From assembly GCA_031763025.1 (NCBI GenBank), contig JASSKH010000038.1, positions 3,079,001-3,143,000 of the forward strand: DNA of 64,000 nt. The letters run 5' to 3'. A program made the translations under genes and the position numbers. Shown here piece after piece: positions 19,994 through 57,490 of the stretch. Every line of letters begins with the position of its first letter. The stretch's first letter is position 1. Under the pieces are notes generated by a model. It did no database searches, had not been told where the DNA came from, and saw nothing but the letters and a program-made list of their open reading frames with translations. Source of the DNA: Macrocystis pyrifera (Eukaryota > Sar > Phaeophyceae > Laminariales > Laminariaceae).

Positions 19994-20263
19994 TGGTTTG
20001 CCATCTGACAATGTGTATAGGGTGGTGAGGCTTCATAGCCAAAAACATGATGAAATTACAGAAAATCTAGACCACCAAAATCAAAAGCGTGAAGTGATGT
20101 TGCCAGCAAACAAAAGCTACTAAAAATAGATGTACCTCCTTGTTCTCTTACACCCCCCCCCTCTCCCCGCAAGGTCATATATACATCGTGGATCTGGTAC
20201 GCACGCACCAGGTACAAAGTAGACTCATATTTACAAGCCAGTGTCGGGTATCGAACGATACTA

Positions 20264-20369
20264 TTACGAGGGTCCATAGTCAACGGGACCAAATTTTGTT
20301 AGTAAAAATAAGTAAATATATAGGTTTTTTATGTATACCATGGGTCCTATTAACTATGGACCCCCGTAA
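20264..20369. mobile_element. TA-target MITE, copy 4
   Basis: A 106-bp copy with ends TTACGAGGGTCCATAGT and ACTATGGACCCCCGTAA, flanked by TA on both sides. It sits in gene-free DNA between the trinucleotide arrays and the single-strand-binding-protein gene. Confidence 0.9.
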
Positions 20370-21138: not shown

Positions 21139-21243
21139 TTACGGGGGTCCATAGTAAATAGGACCTAGTGTTTACACAAAAACCTATATATTTCACAATT
21201 TCTACCAACAATTTTTGGTCCTATTTACTATGGTCCCCCGCAA
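21139..21243. mobile_element. TA-target MITE, copy 5
   Basis: A 105-bp copy with ends TTACGGGGGTCCATAGTAAATAG and CTATTTACTATGGTCCCCCGCAA and TA flanks. One base of the right end differs from the consensus. Confidence 0.9.
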
Positions 21244-21490
21244 TAGTAAATATGACGAAAATTTCCATATACATTTCAACCCTTTTACAAGCAGTTCACT
21301 GACCGTGCATACACAAATACATAATATCTGACTCAAACTCCACGTGATTTTTCACAAAAACGGGAGTGATGTCCAAAAAATGACCTGCATTTCAACAACA
21401 TTGGGTAGTTTGAGAGTCAGTCGAGGACCCTCCGTCAGTCAGAAATAGCTTGGCCAAAACTGTGCTATGCATATCTCTACAGCACGCTTA

Positions 21491-27500: not shown

Positions 27501-30500
27501 AGGTATTATGCAACACGTATGGAGTACACAAGACTGCTGCGCCCACCTCGAGCGGGTGGTATTCGCGCTTGACCGCGAGGCTGAGGTTAAGCACCACCTT
27601 CCCGCTGTCGAAATACTTCGGCTTGGGGTCCTGCCCCAGGTATCCTGTTAAAAACACAGTGTTCAGTCTTGGAACACCCTGGAAATTAAAAAAAAAACAA
27701 AAAAAGAGCGGAATCAAGCACACACGGTAGGGCGAGAGAGAGAGGGCACGTATTTCAACAGCGTCAACAGCAGGCACAGCAAGAAACATGTACGTATTGC
27801 TGCTGTACGTATGTCAGGGTACAGTATCACGTACAGCAGAGCAGGACGTGATTATTACGGGGGGCCATAGTAAATAGGACCAAATATTTGTTAGTAAAAA
27901 TGGGGAAATATATAGGTTTTTGTGTGTACCGTAGGTCCTATTAACTATGGCCCCTCCGTAATGATAACACCTGATAGTGTGTATGCTACTGACGTCTCGT
28001 GTATACGACAGTAGGTACTGCTCTATGTAGTAGGTGTCATACTGACCGCTGTAGTAGTAGGTACCAGGTATCAATGTCTAACAACGCCTTGTCCTGGTTC
28101 TCTAGAATGTGGGCGTCGGAGGTGTTGAGCGACTTCGAGCTACCAATTTATACACAGCAGCGGCGATGGGCAGCGCTACCTTCGGTGGTGGCGGTGACCT
28201 GCATCACACCGGACGCAAATGTGAGGACCTTAAAAGCACTGATATTTACATACCTGGTATTAATAGTAACGATCCTTACCGCTCCGCTCAGAGTGGAGAT
28301 TACGGCAAGTAAAAAGTCAGCCTGATATGCCGCCGGTGACGAATACCATGCTACCTTCTGCTGCCTTACGCTGATGATATCGGGGACAGCAGTAGCCATT
28401 TTTCTCAGTAAGACATACCTTAGCATCTGGTAGGTAGAGAATTCGTCGTCGACAAATGTATAAAAAAAAGATAGATCTCACAAAAAAAGTCCGAATTTGC
28501 AGACAATTCTCCAAAAATAAACCAAGTACAACTTAGGAGGTACACATTACACAGCCCGAAGCACGCTTTGATCTTAATAGTAGTGCTGGTATAATTAATA
28601 GTAGTAGTGTAGGTACTACACACAACCTGGAAATATGAGTTTCAAGCTTTTCGATCTCACAGGTTAGTTTTATTTAATTTTTTTGTAAAAAATTACAGTC
28701 CACAACTCTGGCTCGTATCCCATCGGCGACTTATGTGCGAGATGCTACTCATAGCTTCTGCCTGAAAAGCCACCGGTATCCTACACCAGGCATACAGCAA
28801 ACCACCCTCTGCCTGATACGCCATCAGTGACCAGTATACATCCCACTAGCTTCTGCCTCATGAGCTATCCGTGACCTAAACACAGCACGCCGGGTTCTTC
28901 GTACCGTGTGCCACCCACGCAGAGTATACAACTTCGGTTCGTAATATGTCACCGGTAACCCATACAGCCCACTGCAGTCTCTGTCTCACACAATATGCCA
29001 CCTGTGCCACCCCCCTACAAGCGGCCGCAATCGCTCCCAGCGAAAAGTACCACGACATTGCTCTGTCCGCACAAGCTAAAGTCGACAAGAATATGACTCC
29101 ACCACGAGAGCAACTGCGAAAACAACGAAAACACGCAGTTCCAAGGCAGACAAGAGCGCGCCAGAGGCACCCGCAACACCGACGCGAAACCCAATTTTTA
29201 TCGAAAAAGCGTAACATCAGCTAGCGCTCGACTTAAGGCCAACTATCTCGAGTTTTCAGCGGATCGCCAGCACTAAAGACAACACCACATCTCGATGCGT
29301 AGAGCAAGCAGCTCCCTCCGGCAGGATCAACAGGAAAAATGAAAATAAAAAACAGAGAAAAGGTTTCTAATTTGCCCCGTGCGCTGAAACAACACCCCAT
29401 GTACGATATTTTTAGCGACACGAAACGGCCCAAACAAGGCGGCCGCACCTCATCAAACTCATCCCAAGATGTACTTGGGGGTGTCCACGGTGGCCTGGCC
29501 TCGCCGGGGCCTGAGCTGTAACCTTCACCGCCGGGGACCTGTCGCCCTGCGTCACCAAGTCGTCGAAACATGGAAACACGAAGTCATCGAAAATCATGGA
29601 TTGGTCATATTAATGGGTTTTTCCCATGGGGAGTCGGGGGGATCATACTACATTTTTTCTTGGATCATAATATATCTATATACTTGTTCCATGGGGTCTC
29701 CCATGGGCTACCACGGGACCAGTCGTACTATTTCAATATGACGGCGGAACATACAGTAAGGTAGCAATCATACCCAAAAAAAGCTGTGTGTGAACAGAGG
29801 GGAATACATGGGTTTAGGGTCATGGGATCTGAATGCTGTGAATAACTACGTATTGCTATGCCCCCCAGAACTAGAAAATCAACTGCAGCAGAGACAGGGG
29901 GGGCTTGCATGTTAGACCTTGGCCGAGATTCGGCAAAATGGTTGAAATATAGATTTACTCTAGACCCTGTAACACCAACCCCGACCGCCAAGGAATTTTC
30001 CCAGAATGAAGATGGTTGATGTAATGAGGACCACGTGCCACGCCGCGGGGGGGGGGGGGGGGGGGGGGGGGCGTACTCATTTTTTGCTTGCCTTAGTCAT
30101 TTGACCATGGACCACGCATCCCTTTCGAGACGGAGCACCGTTCCTACTCCTAATAGACACCTTCAACAATTGGGCGCTAATTACGTTGTTTCCATATATT
30201 ACATAGACTTTTTGCTAATCTTATCCCCTTCCTGTTTGGCCTCCTGTGGCCACCATCTATTTCCTAGGGTAGCGATCGTTTTCTCGCTGCTATTCATTGT
30301 ATCAAAATTCTCCATGTCACATTCGTCTATTCCCTCATCTCTTCTAACACATCCCGTTCCTCCTTGTATATTTCACATTCTCCTACTATGTGAGTTCTAC
30401 TCTCTATTGCTTTGCCACACGGGCACATTTGTGCATCTACTTCCTCCTCCCGGCTACTGGTGTACCTCTTTCTTCTTTCTGGCAGGTCCAGGTTCCCTAC

Positions 30501-32301
30501 ACGAAAGCGCAGTTTCAGCGTTTTCGCGATGTCCATTGGGCCATGCAAATACGTTTTCATTCCTCTTCCTTCCCTCAATCCCCCGTATATCTCTAAGTGT
30601 TTTTTTTTCCGATTCCATCTTGTTTCTTAGTGCTGGCCTTTCCCTTCTTTCTATCCTTTCTTCTACTTCTGCCTTGTACCTCCCAAACTTCCCGGCGGAC
30701 ATCCTCTCTTCGGGGGGGGGGGGTGATGAACGTGGGCATCGGCTCGTCCGCAAGGTCGGCCGCCGCCCGCTCCGCACCAGTCACCTCGCGATCGTACGCC
30801 TCGATATTGGAAACGACGGCGGGGCCCTTGCGGCTCGCCGAGGCGATCTGCAGGCGAAGCTTTGCCTTGGTGGCCTCTAAAGCCACGACATGATCACTGC
30901 CGGACGCTTGCCTGGTCGTGGACACCAGCAAGACTTCTTGCGATTGGCGGCCACAGCTAGGCGCCGACGAGTCGCAAGAGGTCTTGTTCGCGGCGACGAC
31001 CAGACAAGCGTCTGGCAGTGATCATGTCACGGCTCTAGAGGCCAACAGGGCAAGGCTACGCGAGCAGCTCGCCTCGGCGGACCGCGAGGTCTCGCCGACG
31101 CCTTCGACAAACGAGATGTGCGATCGCGACGTGGCTGATGCAGAGCAGGCGGCGGCGGCCGACCTCGCGTCGAGCCGACGCCTGCGTCCATCGCGTGCCA
31201 CGCTGGGAAGCGGGGGACTGCGGTTTTGTAGTTTGGACACTTGCTGTCGTTGGTACCTGTTAACATGAACATTTCTATTCTTGCGATTCACCACTGACAG
31301 CTCAGCCCGTCCAGGCATCACTGGTGTCCAGCCTAACCAGTCAACTAAAACGACTTACAGACAGCAGCAGCTCTCGTAAAATATACCGGTATAGCTCCAT
31401 GCTACGTATCCACTGGGTTCGACTATCGATAGACCCCCACTGCTAAAAGCAGTGCTACACTGCTGTGCTGATGTCCACACTGTGATATAGTATGTGTGTG
31501 TGGCTTTTTGTACAAATCGATGATAGGTGCGCGTAGATAGGTTTGAGATCGCAATGTACCTGGCATGCTTGTATACGATTCGTCGATGCATCGACCGGTG
31601 CCACGTACTTCTTAGTACCGGTTGAGGTTGAACACGAATACAGCACATGTACCACAGCAGCAGCAGCAGTAGCTGTATCGGTACCATGTACACGAATGTG
31701 AAGTAACTGCTCTGTGCAATACGATATACGCACCAGGTATGCAACTACTGGTGTCTTGTATACCTGATAGGTTGTTGCAACACGGTCGTATGTCCGAACA
31801 ACACCGAACTCTTGTCTGCGAGGTGGGATCGGTCGATGCAACCTCCGTTGCTGCTGCTGTGTTGTTGCAATGCTTATCTAACCAGGGCGCATGTAAACGG
31901 GGTTCGACTGCTGCACTGCTGCTCGAACGCCAAAGCAAGGCCTAAAGCTGGTAGTGATTGGATGTAGACTATCGTACCAGTAGAGACGCGGAAACGAGTG
32001 GCGAAGACAAAGACGAAGACTCCATTAGTGACGCCTTCACATAGCATGTCGACCAAGCTCCAGGCTCACCAACCTCACCTTCTCCACTCCTTCCGTCACC
32101 AGGGCTACTCTGCATCTTCAGAAGCACCTCCTTCGAGGCGCAGGGGCCTTCTGGTTTGGCCCTGATTGAAGCCGTCCCTGGTATCATCCTGAACGGGGTC
32201 GTGGAGACGCACAGGCGGCTAGAAGGAAGGAAACAGAACGAGCTCGCCGCTGGAAGCGCGACCAGAGCAAAAGCAGCGACATCTTGAAAGCGCCAGCGCA
32301 T
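22463..32301 (-). CDS. ssb: Organellar (probably plastid) single-stranded DNA-binding protein, 5 exons
   Basis: Minus-strand exons are 32301-31978, 27678-27547, 25940-25818, 23940-23875 and 22894-22463, giving about 358 residues. All four introns are phase 0 with GT-AG ends. Exon 1 (108 codons) encodes a presequence with hydrophobic VAAFALVALPAASSF; Phe after a small-residue run resembles the ASAFAP motif of red-lineage complex plastids. Exons 2-4 give a bacterial-type OB fold: LNTVFLTGYLGQDPK, a FDSGKVVLNLSLAVKREYHPL strand pair (read it at 27644-27550), EETDWFQLEMWNRDAEYAATVCKKG and GSLSLNAWTDREGKPRTT. SSB proteins coat single-stranded DNA during replication and repair. Exon 5 is a low-complexity tail that crosses a 22-base C-run. 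The usual acidic DDDIPF-like tip is not visible, so the true C-terminus may lie in an unseen exon. Intron 1 (4.3 kb) holds a LINE relic and a gene-fragment palindrome. Confidence 0.82.
22914..23347. repeat. GATGG minisatellite ending in a G-run (SSB intron 4)
   Basis: Five-base units GGGAT/GATGG and variants (GATGAAATAG, GATGATATGG) are repeated for about 410 bp with higher-order blocks of about 100 bp, followed by 15-20 G. The whole array lies just upstream (in gene direction) of SSB exon 5 and forms its intron polypyrimidine region on the minus strand. Confidence 0.95.
23550..23860. repeat. Degenerate ATGAANTGCATGAA repeat
   Basis: Loose 9-10-base units (GTGCATGAA, GTATGAAGT, CTGCACGAA) run across about 300 bp beside SSB exon 4. 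Confidence 0.65.
24719..24893 (+). repeat. Dispersed repeat D, copy 1
   Basis: This block (CATGGCCGTAGTCGTATGAC..., CCCTCGCATCCCTACAATGC..., GCACGTCGGGTTTTCACCGA..., AGCGCGAAGCGCCGTGAGG) recurs at 25302-25467, truncated at 25526-25576, and inverted at 46736-46916. It is often preceded by a G-run and a GTATGACCAT palindrome. It encodes no known protein. Its class is unknown; a short non-autonomous element is likely. Confidence 0.75.
25302..25467 (+). repeat. Dispersed repeat D, copy 2
   Basis: Nearly identical to the copy at 24719 over the first 130 bases, then continuing into GTGAGCTGCATCCTACTAAGA, which is also shared with the inverted copy at 46736-46916. Confidence 0.8.
25526..25640 (+). 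repeat. Dispersed repeat D, truncated copies
   Basis: Two partial starts of the same unit (GGCCGTAGTCGTATGACCATGG near 25526 and AGCCGTAGTCGTATGGCCAT near 25611) flank a G-run. They suggest repeated insertion or slippage at the same end of the element. Confidence 0.65.
27855..27961. mobile_element. TA-target MITE, copy 6 (SSB intron 1)
   Basis: A 107-bp copy with ends TTACGGGGGGCCATAGTAAATAG and ACTATGGCCCCTCCGTAA. TA is kept on the left; the right flank now reads TG. Confidence 0.87.
28310..29010. repeat. Degenerate 50-60-bp tandem units in SSB intron 1
   Basis: A loose unit around CTTCTGCCTGATACGCCATCAGTGACC recurs about 28310-28390, 28720-28780, 28805-28870 and 28930-29010. Similarity is modest, so the limits are approximate. 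Confidence 0.45.
30170..30710 (-). pseudogene. LINE relic: C-terminal end of a non-LTR reverse transcriptase ORF
   Basis: On the minus strand the frame 30578-30327 contains CPCGKAIESRTHIVGEC followed by a Tyr/Arg-rich helix. That Cys-Cys-His-Cys cluster is typical of the C-terminal zinc-binding region downstream of LINE reverse transcriptases. After a frame change near 30330 the protein continues as LGNRWWPQEAKQEGDKISKK and then stops. At least two frame breaks mark it as dead. It lies in SSB intron 1 and abuts the palindrome at 30.7 kb. Confidence 0.75.
30715..30945 (-). pseudogene. Palindrome I, left arm: coiled-coil gene fragment
   Basis: The minus strand reads TTRQASGSDHVVALEATKAK and onward through an Ala/Glu/Arg-rich helix (RAAADLADE). 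The same fragment, diverged, is on the plus strand immediately to the right. There is no start codon context or full gene. The source gene is not in the window, though its composition resembles the N-terminal region of the kinase gene at 42-53 kb. Confidence 0.7.
30965..31195 (+). pseudogene. Palindrome I, right arm: coiled-coil gene fragment
   Basis: The plus strand reads TTRQASGSDHVTALEANRAR and continues QAAAADLASS, aligning over about 65 residues with the minus-strand left arm. The short spacer (about 30945-30965) is itself partly palindromic (CTTCTTGCGA against TCGCAAGAGG). A single-stranded copy would fold into a hairpin with arms of about 230 bases. Confidence 0.7.
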
Positions 32302-33573
32302 GATCCTCGGTGGTTGGATGCCACGGTATTGTCCGCCGGGAGTTGTTCTTGACTTGTTGAGCTGTCGCGCTGACACACCACAGCGACCGCTTGTGGTCCA
32401 CTCTACAAGATAGGTACACCCGAATGAAAAACGTTCAGTTTTAGATGTGGAAACCCGTGCAGTATCTAGTACCTGGTATCTAGTATCTCTGTATCTCCGA
32501 GGGTAGCCAGCAACGGGAATCCCCATTGGTAGCCAGCAATGGGAATAACTACAAGCCCCTGTACCCGATTAGTCGCACCGCATCAGAGGTCAGAGGAGTA
32601 TTGAGCAAAGAAGGCCCGATCGATACCATCAATACCACCTCTTCCTGTATGCCAAGATGCACACGTCCGATAGATCATCATCTGCTGCTGTATCAGCGAG
32701 CGGCAGATCACCAGATGGAGACTAAATAACCTGCCGTTCTCAGGAGTTGACAATGCACATGACATATGTGCAGAATCTGTGCAAAAGAGTAACTGCTGTA
32801 GTACGCAGATCCAACCCAGGAAGCATGTGCGTGCTGTATACGACGTGTAGTTGTAAGTAGATAATGCAGCTTATACGGCTTCCACTCGTCGACACGAGCT
32901 AGATCATTCTACGCAGGAATGTGCACATGTGCCCTGGAAGATCTACAATAATAATAATAATAATTTAATAGATCAGCTTGTTGTGCGGATTGGTGATCTG
33001 CCCGATGCCGGCAGTTGGCAGTTTTGGCCGTCGCCAAATATAAATAGTAACTATTAATAGAACAATTATTATACTAAAAGTCTAGGCTGCCGCTGTCCGC
33101 CGCAGGCCTACACTGCTGCCTCCTGATACACTCGCCTGTGTGTGTTCTCGTGAGATTTACAGACGCTGCAAGCCGTTGCGTTAGACTCCCTCCGCCCCGT
33201 TGAAAAACACAAGGGAGATATATACCAAACTGAGCAAACTCAAAACATATAGTACGCAAGAGGAGCACCAGAGAGGGGTGAGACACGGCCAACAGCCGAG
33301 ATAAACACACAAGAAAAAAAAACGCGCCGGGACGAGCAAAAACACGAGGGTAAAACACACACAACAAAATAATAAAAACAAAGGGTTTAATCCAAAATCA
33401 GGTAGGTATATAATACATGAATACCTGGCCACTTTTTGGCAAAAAAAAAACAATTACATACGACTGTTAATAAGAACAAGTACAAATCACACCCCAGGAG
33501 CCCTGCTATTGGTCAGACTGACATCGTAACTGATTTTGGCTCGAATTGGTCAGGGTATACCTGATTTTGTCTT
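32302..33573. other. SSB 5' flank and gene-free region
   Basis: No gene is recognised. It should include the SSB promoter and 5' UTR just above 32301 (minus strand). It contains several TACCTGGTA-like motifs (near 32471) and an (AAT)n run near 32949. Confidence 0.45.
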
Positions 33574-33912
33574 CTTTTTTTTTTTTTTTTTTCTTTTTTT
33601 TTATCCATCACTTTTACTTCCCAGCCCACTCGTAGGAGGTTTACCCTCGACGATCTTCTGGACAAGCCGTGGTCACAGGTGTCGTCCCTTCTCCCCCCCG
33701 GTACGTGCCTTTATTTTTTGTCGCGCATAGGGTTCAGCATTCCCACTGCTCGTCGATTTTCATCGAATGTAGCCAACTCACGCTTTTGCGCTTTCCGCTT
33801 ATCAATTTTTTATGCAAGAAAAAGTCCCTATGAGCATGCACTCGGTGGGACTTGAACCCACGAAATTGATCTTGACAGGCACGCGGACCACCTACCAAGC
33901 CACCGGGGACGC
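33574..33912 (-). mobile_element. tRNA-derived SINE, full-length copy 2
   Basis: Minus-strand copy: the tRNA-like head is at 33912 downwards (GTCCCCGGTGGCTTGGTAGG, then GGTTCAAGTCCCACC), and the body and A-tail (T-run on the plus strand) end near 33574. Confidence 0.87.
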
Positions 33913-33919: not shown

Positions 33920-33955
<36 letters not shown>

Positions 33956-34233
33956 CATCACTTTCACTTTCCAGCCTAATTCGTAAGAGGTGTTACCCTC
34001 GACGACCTTCTGGACAAGCCGTGGTCACAGGTGTCTTCCCTTCTCCCCCCCGGTACGTGCCTTTATTTTTTATCGCGCATAGGGTTCAGCATTCCCACTG
34101 CTCGTCGATTTTCATCGAATGTAGCTAACTCACGCTCTCGCGCTTTCCGCTAATCAATCTCTTTAATGCAAGAAACAGCCCCTACGAGCATGCACTCGGT
34201 GAGACTCGAACCCACGAAATTGATCTTGACAGG
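33920..34233 (-). mobile_element. tRNA-derived SINE, 5'-truncated copy 3
   Basis: Minus-strand copy whose head starts at the GCCTGTCAAGATC segment, so box A is missing; box B (GGTTCGAGTCTCACC) is kept. It lies directly behind copy 2, separated only by GCAGCATTC and a long T-run, which suggests insertion into or next to an A-tail. Confidence 0.85.
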
Positions 34234-34556
34234 CATACTGTACTCTGTCTAGCTTTCAAGTTTCAACTGATTTTAGTCAATTTTGAACCAATCAGAAAGG
34301 CCACACGTACACTGTTTTTCCTCTGCGTATGCGTCTGCGGTCCCCCCGTTGCACAATTCTTGTGTATTCTTGTGGTACCTGGTATAAGTTGTAAACTCTG
34401 TACTTTTACGGACGTGGGCCTTTATGCATACGTACGTACGGTCCGTACTTGTACGTGATACGTACGTATATATTTATGCATACATACGTACGGTGATTTC
34501 ACTTTTTTTTCGTCTTTGGGGTGTACGACAAAGATATCAAAAGACAGCATTTTCAC

Positions 34557-34639
34557 TCCTTGACAGACAGCAACTTCGCCTCGACATGCCTCGACTGACA
34601 TCAAACTACTAGGTTTTAGTCTGGAACACTTGGCCCTAA
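34557..34639. repeat. Dispersed repeat (TTGACAGACAGCAACTT family)
   Basis: About 80 bases from CCTTGACAGACAGCAACTTCG to GGAACACTTGGCCCTAAG recur at 57697-57775 with small changes. A related piece (CCTTGACAGCGCACGTTTTGCCTTG) is at 35627 and again near 57778. Confidence 0.75.
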
Positions 34640-34972
34640 GCCGGCGTCCCCGGTGGCTTGGTAGGTGGTCCGCGTGCCTGTCAAGATCAATTTCGTGGGT
34701 TCGAGTCTCACCGAGTGCATGCTCGTAGGGGCTGTTTCTTGCATTAAAGAGATTGATTAGCGGAAAGCGCGAGAGCGTGAGTTAGCTACATTCGATGAAA
34801 ATCGACGAGCAGTGGGAATGCTGAACCCTATGCGCGATAAAAAATAAAGGCACGTACCGGGGGGGAGAAGGGAAGACACCTGTGACCACGGCTTGTCCAG
34901 AAGGTCGTCGAGGGTAACACCTCTTACGAACTAGGCTGGAAAGTGAAGGTGATGAGAAAAAAAAAAAAAAAA
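34640..34972 (+). mobile_element. tRNA-derived SINE, full-length copy 4
   Basis: Plus-strand copy with both A-box-like and B-box-like blocks (GGTTCGAGTCTCACC near 34698) and an 18-base A-tail. It is nearly identical in the body to copies 2 and 3, so activity was recent. Confidence 0.88.
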
Positions 34973-35789: not shown

Positions 35790-38400
35790 GCGGTTTCTTT
35801 GAATTAATTTCCATGATCAAACCTTCGTTTTCGTCGCCCGCAACGGTGGCAACGCCACGTCCGTTGTCCGAACAAAATATTTTTTTAACGCACTATTCTC
35901 GAGTCAAGCCGAGCACTTTTCCCTAGCGAGGAACGGAAAAAAAAAATCGACGTCAGTGCCCTCTTCGTGATTTCATGATGTTATGATACTGCTTTGTATG
36001 AGGTTGAAAGCCCGGTAACTACCTGGGTTCAGTCACTGGGATCGTGTTTGTAGTACTTGGAAGGCGTATCTTAGATGGAAAACCAGGGGTTTTCCAGAGG
36101 CGCACGAGCTTGGTCTCAGTCTCCGCGTGCACGAAAGGAATAAAACTGCTCTTCTTCCATAGCTAAGCAAACAACACATGTGAGTACAATGTTTACCGAC
36201 TTAAAAGGCAGACCTGTCCAGGGATACAAAGTGTCCCGCAAGCGTTGATCTTAACAAGTGGCGTCGCCGGCGTTCAAGAGGGGTCGAGTGGGTTTTGAGG
36301 AGCCGCATCTTCGACTCATGTTCTAGTTCGTGGAATCGGGGTTTCCACGAATTTCCCATAATTCCGCATATACGGCTCATCAGCGTGGGCTAGTGTTATA
36401 ATACTGCTTTGTATGAGGTTGAAAGCCCGGTAACTACCTGGGTTCAGTCACTGGGATCGTATTTGTAGTACTTGGAAGGCGTATCTTAGATGGAAAACCA
36501 GGTGTTTTCCAGAGGCGCACGAGCTTGGTCTCAGTCTCCGCGTGCACGAAAGGAATAAAACTGCTCTTCTTCTATAGCTAAGCAAACAACACATGTGAGT
36601 ACAATGTTTACCGACTTGAAAGGCAGACCTGTCCAGGGATACAAAGTGTCCCGCAAGCGTTGATCTTAATAATGACTCGTGAACTGTGACGACGACACCC
36701 AATCCGATCGGCGAGTAATTGAATCTTGTTACCCAGAATAGCGACGGGCTCACGTCTATGTGACAGGCTCTCAAATGTGGTGGTAACACTACTGTATTCC
36801 CGAATAGAACCGATTACTTTGCCCAACGAGGAATGTCAACAAGCGACGTAGACGCCGGCCTCGTGAACTCCTGCCTGTTAAAGCGTAACGACGACGGTAA
36901 TTCGATCGAGCAGCCCTTTATTCTCGTAGCTCGGGACGGTGGAAACCTCCCGTCTGCGTTTGTTTTTAAACACACCAATGTGTTGATGCACTATTTTCTC
37001 TTTTCCCGACGAGGAGCGTAAAACGACGACGTAATCGCACGCGTCGTGATCTTCTGACTGTCGAAGTGTAACGACGACCCCAATTTGATCGAGGAGCCTT
37101 TTATTCGCGTCATCCAGGACTATGGCAACCTCAGGTCCACATTCAAATCACAAAAATGTGTTGACACACTCTTTCCGAGTCAAACCGAGCACTTTTCCCG
37201 ACGAGGAAAGTCAATAAAGGACGTTATCGCCCGTCCCGTTGCCTTCTGACTGTTGGAGTGTATCGACGACCCCAATTTGATCCATGGGCACTTCCGGTTC
37301 ATCGCCCAGAACGGTGGTGACCTTATGCCCACGTTCCAAACACACAATTTGCGTTAATACATAATTTCCGAGTCAAACCGACCGCTTTCCCTGACGAGAA
37401 ACGTAAAAAAACGACGCAATCGCCGGCCTCGTGATTGTCTGACTGTTGAAGTATAACGACGACCCCAACTCAATTGGTGAGCCCTTTCTTCTCGTCGCCC
37501 TGAACTGTGATGGCAGTCACTCCCACGTTCCAAGCACAAACATGCGATAATACGCTATTTCCGAGTCAAACCGAGCGCGTCACTGACAAGGAACGTCCAA
37601 AAGCGACGACAGCGCCGGCCTCGTGATTGATGAACTGTTGAAGTGTAACGACGACCCTAATTCGATCGATGAGTCCGGCGGTTTCGTCGCTCAGGTCGGT
37701 GGTGACCGTATGTCCATGTTCCAAACGCACCAAAACGTGATAATACACTATTTCCGAGTCAAACCGAGCACGTTACCGACGAGGAACGTCAAATTTCGCC
37801 TCAAGCGTCCGCGTCGTGATCTTCTGTCGTTTGGAGTGTAACGACGGCCCCAATTCGATCGATGAGTCCTTCGGTTTCTTCGCCCGGGACGATGACACGA
37901 CCTCACGTCCAAGTTACGAGTCACACAAAATTGCGCTAAGACACAATTCCCGAGTCAAACCGAGCACGTTTCCTGACGAGGTGCGCCAAACTCCGCTGCA
38001 CGCTCCCGCGTGGTGATTGTCTGACTGTATATGTAGGAGTGTAACGACGACCTAGACTCTCGATGGATGCACCCTTCGGGTTCGTCGCCCACAACGATAG
38101 TAGTGACCGTACGTCCACGTTCCAAGCACACAAGTAAGTGTGCTATCGCACTACTTCCGAGTCAAACGGAGCACTTTCCCGGACGAGGACCGTCAAAAAG
38201 CGGCTTCAACACCGCCTTCGTGATTGTCCGACCGTGGAAGTGCAAAGATGCCCCCCGCTTCGATCGATGAGTCCTTCGGGTTTGTCTCCCTGAACGGTGA
38301 TGACCGTACGTCTACTCTCCAAACCCACTAATGTATTAACACACTTTTTCCGAGTCAAACCGAGCACTTTTCCCGACGGGGAACGTCCAAAAGCGACAGA
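35790..38400. repeat. Satellite-like array, about 190-200-bp unit
   Basis: The anchor CCGAGTCAAACCGAGCAC returns near 37175, 37365, 37560, 37755, 37952, 38158 and 38350, with degenerate units to the left (about 35900, 36800 and 36990). Each unit also has CGTGATTGTCTGACTGTTG, GTGTAACGACGACCCCAATT and TTCGTCGCCC. Units differ by 15-30 percent, so the array is old. Part of each unit can be read as a short open frame, but frames do not persist between units. Confidence 0.88.
35979..36671 (+). mobile_element. TRIM-like element (miniature LTR retrotransposon)
   Basis: Two 278-bp direct repeats (35979-36256 and 36394-36671) differ at only a handful of positions. They start TGTTAT and end TTAACA (TTAATA in the second), the TG...CA form of LTRs. 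The flanks ATGA (35975-35978) and ATGA (36672-36675) look like a 4-bp target duplication. TGGCGTCGCCGGCG, two bases after the first repeat, could be a tRNA primer-binding site. The 137-bp interior has no coding capacity. It interrupts one unit of the satellite array. Confidence 0.78.
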
Positions 38401-42407: not shown

Positions 42408-45400
42408 TCACATACCCTCCTGTACCTTCTCTGTGACCACCGCCGTGGCCACCTTGGGTGTCGCCGCAGGCATCGTTGCCACGGCCGCCGCGCTCCTCCG
42501 GAAATGGGCGTAACGCCCAGCCTGCATGGGTTGAGGAACGGCATCCGCCACGTTAACGTGGGCCGCCTGCGCGTGCCTCAGGAAAGGGCGGTGGCATGTT
42601 GGCGCTCCGGCAGCAGTCCTCTTACCGTCCAAAAAGGGATCCCTGCCGACGGGCAAACCCTCGTCGACCCATGCCGCGGCGGGCGTTTGCGCCGGTCGCT
42701 GAATGGCGTAACCGCCACCGTACCGTCCTCCACCGTGGCCGCCGCCGGCATCGTGGCCACCATTGATGCGTGTTCTGACGTTACCGACGGCACCACTCGT
42801 GCTCATCGACGTCGCAAAGTTACTCTCCGGAAGGGAGTAGTGCACCGCGCCCGCCTCTCTAGCGACGGGAGTAGTTGCAGCTGTGGTGGCCACAGCGGCA
42901 GCGTCCCCGATGCCGGTGGTGTTGACGATCTTGACGGGGGTGACAGCGCGGGGGGTGGGGAGCACATTTCCGCCACTGCCCACGACGAAGAGACCCGGAG
43001 GTAGTCTCTGGACTCTCTTAGGTCCTTCCGGTGCTGCTGCCGGTCTCGTAACGGCGGGCGTGGGGGGAAGACCCCTTGCAGCCCCACCACCACCACCACA
43101 GAGCATCACGCCAACAGCAGCAGCAGCAGCAGGAGCAGGAGCAGCAGCAGGAGCACGGGTAGCACCGTGGCCGTCGACGGGGACTCCCGGCAAGTGAACG
43201 GTGTCCTCCGCAGTAAGCCTCACCAACGCAGGAAGGGGAGCAGCAACAGCGGCCACGGCCACGTTGCCGGATGCCGGGTAAACAGCCGAGGAAAGGACCC
43301 TCTCTTTATGCGACACATGGTTGCTCAGGCTCATGATGGCCTTGGCAAGCTCCGTCAGAGGCTGTCGCTGGGTAGGATCGGGCGATGTCGACCGATCAGC
43401 TATCTCCAGGACCTAGAAAAGATGCGGTAAGTATTTTTACGAGGCATGGAGAACGGGGAGGGGGTAGGGGTGGGGCTAAAATACGGGTACGAACAGGACA
43501 TAGGGTGGAGGCCGCCGTAGGAGCGGTAGAGGCGGCGAAGCAGAGGGAGAGGGCAGCAGTCAGGTGAGAGGGCGATATGGAGGGGGGCGGGGAAGGGGTG
43601 GATACTCGGACGGAAAGGCCGACCGGTGGGAAGAACACGACAGATCGTTAAAATCACTCGGGGAAAGCGTATGCAAAGGTCAACTCCGGTAACTGCATCG
43701 CAGATCATCCGAGTAGGGCACAAACCTCATCTGATATCAGCAACCATGAAGGGGACAGACGGGACTTCGTTCGTACACAGTTAGCCAGCATGGGGGCGGG
43801 GAAGCAGGGATTTCTTGTTTAAGCAACTACATACTTCTATTGTTTGTTGAACCATTTTTTGCAAGTACAGCCAGCTGGTGTATTTTCAGCATATCTGATC
43901 CAGTCTCGACGTTGTTTCATAGTCCACCGCCCTTGTGTATGTACAGTATGAGCGTGGTCGATATTATCAGCAACACAAAAAAAAAACTTACCTCTTGGAA
44001 CACGTTGCTAAGCTCGGGGCGTAGGTTCTCTTTGTTGATGACTTTACGCCGGCACGAAGGTTCGGTCATGTTCCGGTGGGTAATATTCTCCTGCGCGTGG
44101 CGTCGGGTGGGAACCAGGTGAGAAAGCGAAGGCTCGATACTGTATTAAGGTCAACGTCACGATCACGGTCACGGTCAAATTCAACGTCAACTTCAATATC
44201 AAGGTGAAGGTCAATATCAAGGTCAACGTCTATGTCAAGGTCAACGTCCTTGCCAAGGTCAAGGCCAGCGTCAAGATTAGTATCAAGGTCAAGGTTGAGG
44301 GCGAAGCTGAGGTCAAGGATTTACGAACGGAAATAATGAAAGAACCAAGAGAGGGACGACGAAAAGCGAAAAAAGGGCTGCGGTCACGAGAGATTTCAGA
44401 GTGCCAGCGTTTACATACGTACTACAGTAGTACACAGTAGAGCAGTAGAGGGGGTGGGTGTCTGCCAATCTGGCACCAACACGGACTGACTGACCATGCA
44501 CACCATCTGGTCCGCAACGCCTCTTGTTTGCAGTTCCCTCTTATCCTCCGCAGTTATTGCAGCCTAATGTTGTCAGCAACGCGGTACAAAGAATGGGTCG
44601 CCGGCGGCAGGGGGAGGGGGGGGGTATTTTGAGGCCGCGCCGACAACAGAATTTATGCGGCAACAAGTAAGCTTACAGTATTGTATTGGTAGGGTGACTG
44701 CCGGTAATTACATCAAAATGCTGGGGAGGGTATGGAGGTCGACTTCAAGTCTACCTACCGAGGGTTCCCCACACAAATGTTGTGTTTGTGATTCTACTGA
44801 CCTCTTTCGCTACATACGGTCCTCACATGACTCTCCTCTGTCCTGTTCTATCGCAAAGCGCGGGACCGTTCTTCGAACCATCCCCAAACCACCCCCCCCC
44901 ACCCACCGCCCCGGCCCGGGGGAGTGACTTTCACGTTCCCGCCAAACCATCACCCAACCCACCATGCCCAGAACCATATCGTGAGCCATTAGTTCGTTCT
45001 TAGAAAGTACAAGCAGGAAACATCTCAGGGCGAAGAGATGCTTACTCTCCTCCTGCTTATCGTCTGAAAGAAATAACTCAAGAGCCACCACACGTTCGTG
45101 AGCAAGGTGGGTGATGTGATGGTTTGGCGTGAACTTGGAAGTCCGGAACACAGCGCACTCGTCATCTGCCCAACGTTACCTCCGGCGGCTTACTCGCTAT
45201 CCTTGCCCCAGCTCTCCCAACCCACCTTGAACCCTACCCCTACCCCTACCCCTACCCCTACCCCTACCACTACCCCTACCGCCTACTTCGTCCCCGGCCG
45301 GTCGACTATTAATACCAGTTTCACGCCAACCCATCACACCACCCACCTCGATAGCGAACATGTTATGCCGCTTGACGGAAGGCTTAGACACCACCAGCAA

Positions 45401-48400
45401 AAACAGGTGCCCAAGACCGAACGCGTCTTGATCGGGAGTGCAGGGCACGAGTCGGCCCTGCATGGCCTCGGGAGGTTTGCTCCCGAGAGTTCCCTGGCCG
45501 TACCGAATGTCTCCTACAGCTGTTGTTTTTTGTTTGCACGTCGCGTCGGTGAGGAGTGATGGTGGCGGGCAAGAAACGGGGGGGGGTGGCGGGGCGAGCG
45601 TGTTGCCCGCGGCCGACATATTCGTCGGTGGCGATGGTGGGTGGTGGCGGCGGTGGTAGCGGCGGTGGTAGCGGCGATGGCGGTAGCCGCGGCGGCAGCG
45701 CAAGTGGTAGCGGTAGCGATGGCGGTAGTAGTGCCGGCGAGAGAAACGGCGGTTGTGGCGGAAGAACAACGAGGAGCGAGGAAGGTCATGGTTCAAGAAG
45801 AGAACGCACGGAAATGTCAAGGGCAGCAAGCAAATGACAGTACGAAAGCACAACATCGCAACAAGACAAATAGTCGAAACATATTACACCGTACCTTAGG
45901 GGCGACCTTTACATCCAAGCGAGGACGACACGACGAAACAACGCCACTTTATATCTCGTGCACCGCTCCTACACCTTCCCCCCTCCCTCTTTTCCCTCCC
46001 ACCCACCCCACCTTCCGCTCGCGTCCTCTCGTACCCCGCGCGAAACCCGTCCAGAACGCAAAGGCATAAATGACACAGCACAGTATAGATCGATCGCTCA
46101 CCAGCCGCTAGGCCAAAGTCTGTTAGCTTCGCTGTCGGGCTCGTGCCGGGCCCGTCGGAGAACACAAGAACGTTAGCGGCCTTTACATCGTTATGGACGA
46201 GGTTAGACTTGTGAAGATGCGCCAGAGCCATGGCGACCTCGGCCACGAGACTGCAAAGGTTGATGGCCGTAGACGGAGACGAGGGAACCAAAACACGATA
46301 ATGTTTCGGCGGTTTACATGTGTAAGACAGGGAGGGCGGGAACGGGCGGGCAAATAAAAAATATTAACGCTACGTTGGGGTTATCCCCCCCCTCCCCTTA
46401 TATACTATATATATGTTGGGCTGGCGTCGGTTGGCAACGACACTGTAAAACACGCCGCTCACTACGTGAGCTAGACAGCCAGGGTACCGATTTTTTTCGT
46501 TTATTTGTTCGGCGGTCGGTCACAGCTAGTTGTCGAGTTAGATAATTTGTGCGAGGTGAACATCCTTTACTCCGCACAAGTGGGAATGATCGTATCACGT
46601 AGTGGTAGTGTTTATGGTAGGGCACCCGCGAGGCAGTTACATAGTACCCCCATTGCTGTCTCTGGAAGACGTCATGCCGGAAAATATTCAAACTCATTGA
46701 AGCTATCATTCATATGCAAGACCGCCTCACAAGCGGTTCTTAGTAGGATGCAGGTCACCCTTCATGCCACTCGCCAAACACCTCACGGCGCTTCGCGCTT
46801 GGTGCAAGCAATGTCTGCCTGGTCGGTGAAAACCAGACGTGCTCCGTCCCGGCATTGTAGGGATGCGAGGGTCTATAGTCATGCATGCGACTACGGCCAT
46901 GCATGATATCGAGTACACCCCTTCCCCCCGCCCGTTCCCGCCCTCCCCGTCTTACACATGTAATCCGCCGAAACATTCTCGTAGTTCCTTCGTCTCCGTT
47001 TACCGCCACCAACCTTTGCAGTCTCGTGGGCGAGGTTGCCACCGCTCTAGCGCACCTGAACCAGTGTGGCCTAGTCCACAATGACGTTTGCCGCCTTCAT
47101 ATGATGCGAAGGCGGCCCGACTTCATTATGGACTAAATCAGACTGGTGCATGTGCGGTAGAGCTGTGGCGACCTCGGCGACGGAACTGCAATGGTTGGTG
47201 GCGGTAAACGGAGACGAGAAAACCAAAACACGGGAACGCTTGTAGGAGGATTACATGTGTGAGACAGGGAGAGCGGGAACGGGCGGGGGAGAAAACGTAC
47301 AAAATAACTGTGCGGCGAGTTGTATGTAAGGACTTGGTCGAAATCGTTTTGTTTTACGAACCGTCCTTAACTACTCGCCATCCTCGTAAGAAATCAATGG
47401 TGCCCCGGGGTCTGTTTTATTGCTTAATTTAACTCTGAAGCCCTATACACGGTGTCAACTCGAATTGCACACATGGGCCGGGAGAATAAAAGCTGGCGAC
47501 AACCGCCTGATTATCTCCGCCAGACAGACAGGCTCATTCATTTGGGCAAAGATGAAATAGAGATTTCTTCCTGGAAGGCACTGGAGCAGAAAAATACTGA
47601 CTTTAGTTAGAACTCAATCTCACCGTAACACAACGCTCAGACTCATTGATGTGAGACCCCAAGCGGCATCCTCCAGGTCACTCTCTCCCAGCTCAAAAAT
47701 GATCCTCATGTGGCTGAGGGACCTGTCATCCATCGCGACCGGAGCGCAAATATGCGGATGCGCCGGCACCCTAAAACAAGCAAACACATGTAAGTACGGG
47801 GGAATAGGGGATAGCAGAGGGTGAGCGGGGAATCTATTGGCGTGATGCTAGGGATTACATGCGGGGGAATAGCTAGTACCTTGGCGGGTTACTGAGAAGT
47901 ACATGCGGGACAATAGGAATTCTATTAGCTGAGTAATAGGGAATTTATTGGCGGGGCACTAGGGAATAGATGCGGGCCAACATCCGTGCGTGAGCAGGGT
48001 CGGGTGAACATCCTCGAGAGAATAGGGGCGGGAGGGGAGGGGAGGGTAGCAAGGCTGTGGTACCGCCGTACACCAAGCGCCGCACAGCAAGGCACAGCAC
48101 AATTCAGCACAACACAACACATTCGAGTACATCAGGCGTGCATACAGCGAGTGGACGTGGGTGTGGAGTCCTCAAGACGGACATGCCAGGGAACACAGAC
48201 AAGGCGAAGTCAACGATGGTTTATACTTAGTATGGCGCAAGCGGCGCGACACAAACAGGTGACTCGTTTTGTTGGTTGGTGTTGTTGTATCGCTGCGTTG
48301 TGGTCAGTCAGATGATGCTGCGGCGAGTGGTACAAAGGGAGACAGGGCTACAAACCGAAAAAAAGTGCAGTAGAGACAAAGCGCTGCACACGTCCTCACT

Positions 48401-51400
48401 GGAGAAGTACAGCCATTTCTGTGACAAAGGTCATCCGGGCAGTCCTCGCGTTCGCGCCGTCGCACCCATCGCCCTCTCCGTTCTTTGGCTGCCGGGGTTG
48501 GGATGAGCACACGCACAGTCACATGCAAGGGGGAGAAGGGTAAGGGTGCACAGCACCAAAGAGGGAAGGGGGGGGGATAAGTGAACTGTCGGCGGCTAGG
48601 AAGGCAGGGAAGACAGAAGGAAGGTAGAAAAAATCAAAGGAAGAAAGCAAACAATGCCTGCGGCCGCGAGCGGGCACACCCGCAAGAGGCAACAAAACAA
48701 AACAAACGAAAATAATGCACACGACACACGCATATATGATGCAGCACACAGCGTGAAAAGCCAAGCATCGTATCATCAAACAAAAATAAAAATGGCCCGA
48801 CTCACAGCTATAAGAGCCCACAGAAAAACAAGAACTGATGCCAGTGGTAGAAACAGTACGCCAAACCGAACGAAACAAGAATCTCACCGCGGTAAAGCTC
48901 TTTACAGCGAGTGCAATTCCGAGAGTCGGCACCTCCACCGCGGAAACGGAGCCGAAGGCGCCCTCCCCCAGCTCCCTGGCTGCCACCATCCAGGTTTTGT
49001 CATGCGAGAGCATGCGCCCCGCCATGAATTCGGCTTCCGTTTCGTCCGTTTCGCCCGTGCCGTTCGAGGATCGCGCGCGATCCACGAAGGCGTTGTACAT
49101 CTCCCCTCGTTTCCAGTTCCCCACTGTGGTGTAGAGGCTGTTGGGCGGCAGAGAAGGCCTTGCCTCTACAGCAGCCACTGCTACCGCCGCGGGTGCATCA
49201 TGCTGCGCGGAGGGGACCCGAGCGTAGATGAGATGAGATGATGTTGCATGAGCGGGGGGGGGGGGAAGGGAGTTATGTGGGGTTAGGAGGGTGGGGTGGG
49301 AAGTGGGGAGGTTTGGAGGAAGAGGGGGGTGATGGGAGAGGAGAGGAAGAAGGGGCAGTGGCTCCTTCAGCGCGGGTTACCACGGCAGTGGATGAGGCAG
49401 CGCAATACGTAGCACAGAACCCATCAAAGGTGGAACCCGGCAAAAGTAAATTACGCGCGAGACGTCGTCCATTCAGCTCGCGGGTGTTACCATACACGAC
49501 GCAGAGCAATAGCCGCAGCTCAAAGGCAATCAGCCGCGACCAAAACGACGAGCGGGTGGTGCATGCATCCAGCCTCCTTGCAGCAGCACAAAAGCGGATG
49601 TTATTACTTCCAGCAGCCGCATGCAAAATTCAGAAACAGAACTCGTCCTATCCCCCCCCCCCCCCGCCGCCGCCTGGGATCCTTTGTAATATTTTCAGGC
49701 TACTATTCACGTCCACGGGTTTGACCACGAGGCAAGACCGAACCGACATATGGCTGTTTGCTCGTGCCATACCCCCCTACCCGACTCTCCATTCGATGTT
49801 AGGCTCTTTCCAGCCTCGCTCTGATACACCCTCCCCTACTAGACATCAATATGTACTTCACAGATGAGACCAGTACATTAATTTGATAAAAACGTCTACC
49901 TGGTATACTATTGGGGAAAACTCATGTTTGTTGGCTCAGAGCTGATCGTCTCCTAATAAAAACAAAAAACCATCAACTACAGTAATTCATCTACCTGGTC
50001 GTATTTACCAGGTATTTGGTATCGTACTATCGTGTATACATGTCTTCCACAGTAGTAGTTTTAAAATACGAATTCAACTATTATCTCGATCGTATACAGA
50101 ATAAATGGGGTGTGGGTGGGCGCCTCGGAGGTAGGGATACATGATTTCACATTAAACCCAAGTAATTGACTAATTAATGAACGAATGAATAAATTCATTT
50201 GACTCGCTGTTACCCTCTCGTACGTGTACATATATGTATGTACTTCGTGTGCAGATACCGTGTCTCTCGTCGAACAAAATTCAATAAATTGCTTGTTCCA
50301 CCAGTCATCGTCTCCGGTTTAAAAGACACAGGAAAAAGTCAATTCACCCCTCAACAACCCCAACAATAAACTTGTTTCCACCTATCAGCAGTTTACTGTT
50401 AATAACTGTGCTGAGACACTAACATAACAACCGCACCATGCCCAACACCACCACCAACAATCACACAGACAGCCGTGACGTGCATGTGCATGCATGCGGC
50501 AAGCATACCTCTTGTGTGTTTGTCATCTTGATTTGCATTTTGGGCCGTTTCATCAGTGCATGGTCTTCTAGAGCGACAGCCAAGGCCCTCGCTCTAGCCA
50601 AGGAGAGGCGCCACAACCTCAGCACGTCGGCGCGGGCTTCTGCAACGGCTTCACTCAGAATATGCTCTCGGGCCTGGCGATTAAAATAACAGTCATTCGG
50701 ATCGACACAGTGAGACGGGGAGGTGAGTAAATGCTTCAGATCTAAGCACGTGTCGAAGAAGGGGGTAGGGGAAGGGGGCAAGCCCTGTGCTAATAGAAAC
50801 ATGACAATGCTTATACTGTATAGATAAAAGCGAAACAGCGGTCAAAACGACTCCTTCGACCGACTGTAACTTGTCACGTTCATACCAAAACAACATTCAC
50901 TGTGCCAATAACACACCGTAGTATCCCTCTGTCAACGCCGCTGTCCATTTTTTTGTCCCCCCTCTCCCCCTTACCAAATGGCCGAAACGGTGGTAAAAAC
51001 GTTGGGTTGTCCCCGTGAAATTAGTTTCTCGCTCCCTGTTTTTTTTTTACAAAATCCCCTCCACCCCTTTGGTATCCCATAAGAAGCACGAAAAAACGTT
51101 GGAACAAAAACCGCCAGAACAATGCACAATGTGGGGGCATTGGTGAGGGATTGGGGGGTGCAGAATCAACGCCGTTCCCACCTTCTTCACCTGATACATG
51201 TCCAGCCGACGAATCTCGTGCACGCAACCAATATCAACATACATGCAAGTATTGGAGTACGAAACATAGGTATGACTCACGTTGATGACCCCAAGCATGT
51301 CCTGCAGGCGGCGGAGTATGCGGTCCACCTCAGCCTGCCGGCGGTGGGTGAAACCTTCCCGGTCCTCGGCGGGCATGCTGTTGATTTTTCCCATTGTATC

Positions 51401-55077: not shown

Positions 55078-55460
55078 CCGACTCACAGCTATAATAGCCT
55101 ACAAAAAAAAACTGACGCCAATGGTAGAAAGAGTACCCTAAAACAAAAACGAAAGCAAGAATCTCACCGCGGTAACCGTCTCCATGGCTACCATGACGCG
55201 AGGGTCCGCACCTCCACCGCCGAAACGGAGCCGAAGGCGCCCTGTCCCAGCTGCCTGGTTTCCACGACCCAGTTTTCCTCCTTCTCCGTCGGATTCAGCA
55301 TTCGCCCCGCCATGAACTCAGGGTTCGTGCCTTCCGTGCAGTTTGAAAGCCGTGCGCGCTCCACGGAGGCGTTGAACATCTCACGTCGTGTCCATTTCTC
55401 CAATTTTAGGTACATGCCATTGGGCGGCGGAAGAGGCCTTGCCTCCACAGCAGCCACTGC
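55078..55460 (-). pseudogene. Palindrome IV, left arm: kinase N-lobe exon plus intron
   Basis: The minus strand translates MFNASVERARLSNCTEGTNP, then LGQGAFGSVSAVEVRTL, and breaks at a frameshift to ASW-stop before the VAIK lysine. Downstream it keeps the functional gene's donor (GCGGTGAGATTCTTG) and about 80 bases of its intron as far as GCTGTGAGTCGG. Because intron sequence is included, this is a DNA-level duplicate of 49190-48795, not a retrocopy. Confidence 0.85.
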
Positions 55461-55469
55461 CACAGGGAG

Positions 55470-55790
55470 GTGGTAGTGGGTGCTGTAGAGGCAAGGCCTC
55501 CCCTGCCACCCAACAGCATGTACACCAAAAGTGGAGAAATGGACACGGGGGAGATGTTCAACGCCTCCGTAGAGCGCGCGCAACCCCCGAGCGGCACGGA
55601 CGGCACGGGCGCTGAGTTCATGGTGGGGCACATGTTAAATCCGACAGAGAAGGAGATAACCTGGATGGTGGCAACCAGGCAGCTGGGACAGGGCGCCTTC
55701 CGCTCCGTTTCGGCGGTGGAGGTGCGGACCCTCGGTGTCACGCTAGCCATGAGGACCTTTACCGCGGTTAGATTTTTGTGCACTGCCTCC
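55470..55790 (+). pseudogene. Palindrome IV, right arm: inverted kinase N-lobe exon
   Basis: The plus strand translates MFNASVERAQPPSGTDGTGA, then LGQGAFRSVSAVEVRTLGVT and LAMRTFTA. The Gly-loop has Arg in place of a Gly and the VAIK lysine is Arg, so it could not encode an active kinase. The donor is GTTAGA instead of GTGAGA. The spacer to the left arm is about 10 bases. Confidence 0.85.
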
Positions 55791-55879: not shown

Positions 55880-56480
55880 GGGTGGTGGGGATGTTTTTTC
55901 TTCTTAACCCCGACGCCAAGGAGCCCTGAGGCGGGGCGGGTACATAACCACCGCAGAGAGCGCTACATGGTGTGGAGGCCGGCCACAGCGTGGGTACGCA
56001 TGCACGAGAGGACGGGTGGGAGTGTCGGCGTTGGCTGGGACGGCTGCAGCCAGTCGACGGAAACCAAGGCGCGAACCGGGCTACGAAGCGGAGAGCCACT
56101 TTCGTCACAGAGAAAGAAAATGAAACAAATGAAGATAAAAATGAGGCGGGGACGAGCCTCACGTCGGCTGGCAAAGAAAGCAGCGCTTGAGGCTCGTCAG
56201 AGACGGAAGGAGGTTCTTGTGACGGTGGCGACCTAAAATGTGCGCACCCTGGCTGTAAAGGGGAAGAACGGGTACGGACATTACAAGCGTGCACTGGCGA
56301 AGGGCCAGCAACCCGGCTGTGACTCATTGGCCTCCAGGAAACTCCGAGGTCGGGCACCAGGACGTTCCTTGCGGCAGACTATTGCATTTTTTTGTTTAGG
56401 TCAGGAAAAAACAGCTGCCAGGCAAGGCTGTACAGAGTAGGTCTAGCTGTCAAGGATTTGTTATGCAGTAAGTCTCACGA
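55880..56480 (+). pseudogene. LINE relic: N-terminal endonuclease of a non-LTR retrotransposon
   Basis: An Arg/Lys-rich leader ends VLVTVAT, then a TAA, then NVRTLAVKGKNGYGHYKRAL and, after a frame change near 56322, LIGLQETPRSGTRTF, with a later VGLAVKDLL. The ATxNVRTL and GLQETR-like blocks are the Asn and Glu motifs of the exonuclease-endonuclease-phosphatase domain of LINEs. A stop and a frameshift make it inactive. The rest of the element is absent. Confidence 0.75.
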
Positions 56481-56667
56481 ACGGCATATATCTATGCTGG
56501 TACATCCCCTGCGTGGGGGAAAGACAGTTTTTTCTTTTCTTTGATGTGTTTTTTTTTTTCCCTTCTTTCAAACAATGGGTATCTCATGCCTGTCGTATCC
56601 AGTAAGATGGCATGGCATTGCATTGTCAACTCTGCTTGCTGCATAACAATACGTACCGATGGTATCT

Positions 56668-56929: not shown

Positions 56930-57490
56930 TTAGTAAGGCATTTGCTTTTTAAAATGCCTGAGACCGCCTGAAACCTTGTCGGCGCCCCAAGACAAACCCT
57001 ATACTAATTTCGAGCAGTTTTGTGTGAAAAAATAGAGATAGGCAAAAAGATAGGCATATGTGACGTACCTTCATTCGTCTTTAACCCTTTTAGTACCGCA
57101 GTCCTTTTTTGGGGACAAATCACTTGGAATTAAACTGGTTTGTCCCCAAATCGGGACTGCGGTACTAAAGCAGTTAACGTGCCTATCTATTTAAGGCATT
57201 TGCCTTAAAAAATGCCTGAGACGTGCCCGAAAACTTTTCGGCGCATCAAGACAAACCCAATACTAACTTCAAGTGGTTTTGTGTTAATGGGCAAAATGCC
57301 TGGAAAATGCCTGAAACTCGTTCAGCGCCCGACGCCAATCTTAGACTAAGTTCAAGTAGTTTGGTTTGCAAGTGGTAAAAGGCCTGAAAAAATGCCTGAA
57401 AACTAATCACCGTCGTAAGGAAAAATCCCATACAGAAATCAAATAGTTTGTTTGCAAGCGGTAAAATGCCTGAAAGAATGCATGTAAACG
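56930..57490. repeat. TGCCTGAAA-containing degenerate repeats
   Basis: AAAATGCCTGAAA/AATGCCTGAGA recurs about ten times between 56930 and 57490, and again near 57930-58060, in otherwise unrelated AT-rich sequence. One piggyBac-type MITE has landed inside the block. Confidence 0.6.
57085..57173. mobile_element. piggyBac-type MITE, copy 2
   Basis: An 89-bp near-perfect palindrome (CCCTTTTAGTACCGCAGTCC ... GGACTGCGGTACTAAAGCAG) flanked by TTAA at 57081-57084 and 57174-57177. It matches the copy at 10258 throughout. Confidence 0.85.

What the first reader, a model, noticed from the sequence alone, without database searches (positions are those of the whole stretch)
55078..55790. Palindrome IV: two inactive kinase N-lobe exons head to head with almost no spacer
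Each arm is about 300 bp of the kinase exon found intact at 49202-48888. The minus arm also carries about 80 bp of that gene's intron, so the copies arose from genomic DNA. The minus arm has a frameshift before the VAIK lysine. The plus arm has Arg at the lysine and a damaged Gly-loop. The spacer is about 10 bases, so a transcript from either strand would fold into a hairpin with arms near 300 nt.
Basis: partly seen in the sequence, partly recalled or inferred. Interest (0 to 1): 0.85.

Follow-up and report, generated by a model that had tools for sequence, protein, structure and literature searches.

The report
Decayed head-to-head kinase exon pair
Two broken copies of one kinase exon lie back to back as a mirror image, a decaying DNA-level duplication that could fold into double-stranded RNA if transcribed; what stands out is that the same gene has given rise to at least two more such mirror pairs nearby.

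Summary
The palindrome is real: 55156-55778 matches its own reverse complement at 82% over 626 columns, with 6 nt between the innermost arms. 0 of 20 shuffled windows had any such match. Both arms are broken copies of the exon at 49202-48888; the left arm carries about 90 bp of its intron.

The arms share in-frame indels against that exon, so their common ancestor differed from it as it stands. Palindromes at 46925-47289 and 44926-45143 are built from other exon-intron junctions of the same gene: three of five self-palindromes found come from one kinase gene, two of them inside its introns.

Arm-private changes fall evenly on codon positions (13/17/15), and G:U pairs are not favoured. Either strand could still fold strongly, and some 21-mers match the exon closely enough for silencing. 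No RNA data were available; the own-genome search did not complete.

Best reading: a neutral relic of local fold-back or template-switch duplication. An RNAi source is possible but unshown.

The parts
55156..55463 (-). left arm of palindrome IV: broken kinase N-lobe exon copy (1-nt deletion and stop before the lysine position) plus the first 12 nt or so of intron
55078..55167 (-). intron-derived end of the left arm, about 90 bp, homologous to 48797-48887; 55078-55155 has no partner in the right arm
55464..55469 (.). 6-nt centre (loop) of palindrome IV
55470..55778 (+). right arm of palindrome IV: broken exon copy, Arg at the lysine position, Gly-loop GQGAFRSV
48888..49202 (-). intact relative in the window: exon with GEGAFGSV and ALAVK, donor-like GTGAGA just after it
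46925..47289 (.). palindrome III: inverted pair of intron plus catalytic-exon copies, inside an intron of the kinase gene
46102..46350 (-). catalytic exon (46250-46102; VHNDVKAANVL...DFG) with the end of the intron before it, related to palindrome III
44926..45143 (.). palindrome II: inverted pair related to an exon-intron donor region of the kinase gene, inside a later intron
45315..45375 (-). exon end and intron start related to palindrome II

Best explanation
Palindrome IV is a neutral, decaying relic. A stretch of kinase-gene DNA (one exon with its flanking intron, from the local gene or a close paralogue) was copied and joined to an inverted copy of itself with almost no spacer, most likely by fold-back or template switching during replication or break repair. 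Shown: the inverted pair, intron included, the common ancestry of the arms apart from the window exon, damage to both, an even codon-position spectrum of arm-private changes, and two further palindromes from the same gene. Inferred: the fold-back or template-switch step, and the absence of present function. Any double-stranded RNA would be a by-product of read-through transcription.
For: Arm-private substitutions by codon position 13/17/15 (plus 2 all-different columns at position 3), so no third-position excess (chi-square p 0.77). Both copies damaged. G:U versus A:C mismatches in the plus-strand hairpin 12 vs 20, no significant bias (p 0.22). Intron sequence in the left arm: 88 of 111 compared columns equal the window gene's intron (that class includes 10 exon columns). 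Palindromes II and III show the same design from other junctions of the gene, which fits a recurrent mutational process.
Against: One 60-column block over the Gly-loop has only 1 arm-arm difference (5 of 3000 permutations; p 0.005). Other widths are weaker: 40, 50 and 70 columns gave 409, 61 and 46 of 3000, 30 and 45 gave p 0.20 and 0.10. Palindromes I-III show no such block. Three palindromes from one gene may be more than an undirected process would leave, but the genome-wide rate is unknown.
Confidence: 0.62

Rival explanations
1. A hairpin-RNA locus or young MIR-like gene: a transcript of the palindrome folds, is diced to about 21-nt RNAs, and these silence the kinase gene or its paralogues.
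For: Foldback z-scores -45.5 and -36.9. Antisense 21-mers that pass simple target rules against the window exon and its flanks: left arm 83 of 387 (10 with 5'U), right arm 62 of 304 (11 with 5'U). The Gly-loop block is conserved between the arms. If the organism is a brown alga: Ectocarpus has one Argonaute, mostly 21-nt 5'U small RNAs, and RISC-bound RNAs enriched for introns and miRNAs (PMC12867755 section 9).
Against: No RNA data. No significant wobble bias. Arms already differ at 49 of 307 columns. Only 2 of 387 left-arm and 0 of 314 right-arm 21-mers match the window exon region exactly. The organism is not established by any search.
Confidence: 0.25
2. A transposable or foldback element captured the exon and moved it as a palindrome.
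For: A LINE-like reading-frame piece lies just to the right (about 56.17-56.54 kb, by eye). A dispersed repeat abuts palindrome III.
Against: No other copy of palindrome IV in the window beyond the exon itself. Each kinase palindrome holds a different junction of one gene, not a shared element. Pfam does not confirm the LINE piece. Target-site duplications and terminal repeats were not tested.
Confidence: 0.1
3. Assembly or read artefact (false inverted join).
For: Fold-back chimeras occur in long reads (recalled).
Against: The arms differ at 49 of 307 aligned columns and the left arm has about 78 bp of intron with no partner in the right arm.
Confidence: 0.03

Closest known systems
MIR genes born by inverted duplication of a target gene (plant model 1; PMC10004981, passages; Allen 2004 seen only in reference lists)
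   Same: both arms are related to a protein-coding gene well beyond any 21-nt stretch; long imperfect foldback
   Different: no small RNA shown; one arm spans an exon-intron junction; several palindromes from one gene
Endogenous siRNAs from long inverted repeats and two pseudogenes in Trypanosoma brucei (PMC3447711, passages)
   Same: inverted repeats and some pseudogenes as dsRNA sources
   Different: those inverted repeats are 99-100% identical and have reads; here the arms are 82% alike and no reads were available
Fold-back inverted duplications of human chromosomes (PMC3907307, passages)
   Same: inverted copy next to an unduplicated spacer, thought to begin from intrastrand fold-back
   Different: far larger, with spacers from 766 bp to 70 kb; here a small palindrome with 6 nt between the arms and a related exon still in place
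[quoted passage not shown]
   Same: exon-level change and pseudogenes in a signalling gene family
   Different: the words 'inverted' and 'orientation' occur 0 times in that text; I saw passages only

Membership tests
long inverted repeat / hairpin-RNA locus | near-complementary arms with a short loop, folding far better than shuffles | tested here: met
long inverted repeat / hairpin-RNA locus | transcribed and diced into small RNAs | not testable with these tools
   no RNA reads available
long inverted repeat / hairpin-RNA locus | complementarity to a target good enough for silencing | tested here: inconclusive
   83 of 387 and 62 of 304 21-mers pass loose rules against the window exon region, no random control run; paralogues not searchable
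MIR gene from inverted duplication | both arms homologous to the target gene | tested here: met
   (the window gene or a paralogue of it)
MIR gene from inverted duplication | one precise miRNA/miRNA* duplex, maintained while the rest decays | tested here: inconclusive
   a 60-column low-difference block exists, but the longest identical run is not unusual (354 of 5000 permutations); no reads
processed (mRNA-derived) pseudogene | introns absent | tested here: not met
   left arm carries the gene's intron
MITE or foldback transposon | dispersed copies with common ends | tested here: inconclusive
   no further copy in the 64-kb window; the genome could not be searched
MITE or foldback transposon | target-site duplication | not tested
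   outer ends are uneven; not examined systematically
protein kinase N-lobe (for the exon) | statistically supported kinase-domain match | tested here: inconclusive
   exon alone none in Pfam; calcium-dependent kinase in register at E 1.2; joined exons give Pkinase 5e-17 over profile 72-258, which leaves out the N-lobe exon
known Rfam family | gathering-level match | tested here: not met
   0 matches in the window

The most novel reading that the evidence does not exclude
One kinase gene carries a set of self-derived hairpins, two in its own introns and one outside its mapped kinase exons, each copied from a different exon-intron junction. Each time the gene is transcribed it would make its own double-stranded RNA, giving small RNAs that hold back the gene or its paralogues: an auto-regulatory set of hairpins renewed by recurrent inverted duplication.
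Probability: 0.1. Interest if true: 0.75.

Novelty: new member of a known kind. Interest (0 to 1): 0.42.

Why it matters
Inverted gene-fragment pairs are the proposed raw material of new microRNA and siRNA genes. A gene accompanied by three such pairs of different sequence is a direct place to ask whether such pairs are made often and mostly decay, or are kept because they silence their source. If the organism is a brown alga, this meets a question left open in print: where its many intron-derived Argonaute-bound RNAs come from (PMC12867755 section 9).

Tried and rejected
Relatives elsewhere: the N-lobe exon, its two-sequence alignment and the catalytic exon found no relative in viral contigs (14, 67 and 41 pattern matches, none confirmed), and the alignment found none in genome contigs (101, none confirmed). 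Neither collection is built for eukaryotes, so this says little.

Hairpin maintenance by wobble pairs: G:U vs A:C in plus transcripts was 14/14, 2/7, 7/10 and 12/20 for palindromes I, II, III and IV; only IV was tested (p 0.22). No support.

Right-arm intron: the palindrome itself runs about 12 nt past the donor in both arms. Beyond 55778 there is only a weak 11-column match to the intron (32 of 500 shuffles as good), so no more intron is claimed for the right arm.

A first comparison for palindrome II used the wrong orientation and gave nothing (70 of 300 and 25 of 300 shuffles as good). The corrected one is (right arm 70, best of 500 shuffles 36; left arm 51, best 41).

In one search the exon end was set at 48898 rather than 48888, so the 'intron' class holds 10 exon columns and the codon counts omit them. 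One search counted down to 48889 and gave 30 left-private, 17 right-private and 40 arms-shared changes.

The promoter and terminator scan is for bacterial signals and is uninformative here. The LINE-like pieces at 55.83-56.54 kb got no Pfam match.

Full report
Observation. The window contains a closely spaced inverted repeat at 55156-55778. Self-blastn aligns it to its own reverse complement over 626 columns at 82.4%. The exact-seed tool splits it into three arm pairs with the innermost 6 nt apart. In 20 block-shuffled versions of the window no self-palindrome of 80 nt or more appeared; the real window has five. The arms differ at 49 of 307 aligned columns and their outer ends are uneven, so a simple fold-back artefact of reads or assembly is unlikely (inference).

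Content. Both arms are relatives of the exon at 49202-48888 on the minus strand (left 74.8%, right 76.5%). The left arm continues into that gene's intron for about 90 bp, the last 78 or so without a partner in the right arm. The left arm has a 1-nt deletion and stop before the lysine position. The right arm keeps an open frame with Arg at the lysine position and GQGAFRSV for GEGAFGSV; this frame owes something to a compensating 1-nt gain and loss. The kinase N-lobe label is motif-based: the exon alone has no Pfam match and only a weak, in-register match to a solved kinase (E 1.2). The gene itself is a kinase: its catalytic exon hits Pkinase at 3.9e-10. Joining the translated exons raises this to 5e-17 across profile positions 72-258, which supports one gene from about 47.8 to 43.3 kb. 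That match does not reach the N-lobe exon at 49 kb, so its place in the gene rests on strand, order and motifs.

History. The arms share a 9-nt gain and a 9-nt loss relative to the window exon, both in frame. Among comparable exon columns 40 separate the window exon from both arms, 28 are private to the left arm and 17 to the right, with 2 all different. The arms therefore had a common ancestor distinct from the window exon as it is now. Either the source was a paralogue, or a copy diverged before it was inverted, or the window exon changed; no outgroup was available to decide. Arm-private changes fall evenly on codon positions (13, 17, 15; chi-square p 0.77), as expected of non-coding sequence. 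Changes between the window exon and the arms are 12, 10, 18, a third-position lean that is not significant (p 0.27).

Wider pattern. Palindrome III (46925-47289) is an inverted pair of copies of the catalytic exon's start and the intron before it. The exon itself stands at 46250-46102; the homologous stretch runs to 46350, about 600 bp away, and is 80-83% alike. Unlike palindrome IV, the arms of III are no closer to each other (78%) than to the exon. Palindrome II (44926-45143) is an inverted pair related to the donor region of another exon at 45375-45315 (right arm score 70 against a best of 36 in 500 shuffles, left arm 51 against 41). II and III lie between exons of the gene, so they would be in its primary transcript. 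Palindrome I (30725-31192) has no source in the window; the fifth, at 57081-57177, was not pursued. Three of five self-palindromes thus derive from three different junctions of one gene.

RNA potential. Folded as RNA, palindrome IV gives -520.3 kcal/mol on the plus strand and -528.2 on the minus strand, against shuffle means of -243.5 and -254.5, each with 0 of 20 shuffles as good. Palindrome III on the minus (gene) strand gives -271.6 against -131.9, with 0 of 100 as good. Mismatches in IV do not lean significantly towards G:U (12 G:U, 20 A:C in the plus transcript, the reverse in the minus). One 60-column block over the Gly-loop has a single arm-arm difference (5 of 3000 permutations). Six widths were tried over and most were weaker; palindromes I-III show no such block. 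Coding constraint before the copies died, gene conversion between the arms, hairpin function or chance could each explain it. Exact matches to the window exon reach 22 nt (left) and 19 nt (right). Under loose plant-like rules, 83 of 387 left-arm and 62 of 304 right-arm antisense 21-mers could address the exon region (no random control). This is capacity, not evidence of use.

Mechanism. The intron content speaks against retroposition of a spliced mRNA. A tiny spacer and copies beside a persisting relative fit fold-back or template switching in replication or break repair; inverted duplications by fold-back, with 2-8 bp of inverted microhomology at 13 of 21 sequenced junctions, are described in human chromosomes (PMC3907307, passages). 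I take the palindrome as a neutral relic (0.62), with a hairpin-RNA source as the main rival (0.25).

Context in print. Seven papers were seen, all as passages (PMC4513859, PMC12867755, PMC12477816, PMC3447711, PMC11378527, PMC3907307, PMC10004981), and one section of PMC12867755 in full. In Ectocarpus, small RNAs are mostly 20-22 nt with 21 nt predominant and 5'U-biased, there is one Argonaute, and the RISC-bound pool is enriched for introns and miRNAs. Its authors also used palindromes to find putative miRNA genes, taking 70 bp to each side of the centre (passage). Ten literature searches listed no paper whose title or opening abstract lines describe exon palindromes of a brown algal kinase; several lists were capped and most listed papers were not read. 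That this window is brown algal is my recall from its look, not a result.

Limits. The own-genome search did not complete (13 requests), so paralogues, genome-wide palindrome rates and organism remain open. No expression data were available.

Noticed in passing
46925-47289: Palindrome III: inverted copies of the kinase catalytic exon's start plus upstream intron, inside an intron of the same gene; tight foldback (-271.6 kcal/mol).
   Followed up: yes
44926-45143: Palindrome II: diverged inverted pair related to the exon-intron donor region at 45315-45375 of the same gene.
   Followed up: partly
30725-31192: Palindrome I: each arm has an open, coiled-coil-looking frame; no source in the window.
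   Followed up: partly
24694-24847, 25271-25512, 46691-46933: Dispersed repeat of up to about 245 bp (the first copy is partial) with a G-rich end; one copy abuts palindrome III.
   Followed up: partly
1312-1653, 33572-33912, 33922-34235, 34639-34972: A 300-bp repeat in four copies, 91-99% alike, two of them a 99% inverted pair 439 nt apart.
   Followed up: no
10409-10520, 11913-12030, 12969-13082, 20259-20377, 21134-21249, 27853-27970: A 110-bp repeat family in six copies on both strands, 80-89% alike.
   Followed up: no
56170-56541: Reading-frame pieces that look like the start of a LINE endonuclease, next to palindrome IV; by eye only, no Pfam match.
   Followed up: partly
36796-38397: Tandem-like repeats offset by about 190 bp, roughly 68-71% alike.
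   Followed up: no
57081-57177: A short fifth self-palindrome (97 columns, 78%), A+T-rich by eye; also related to 10253-10351.
   Followed up: no
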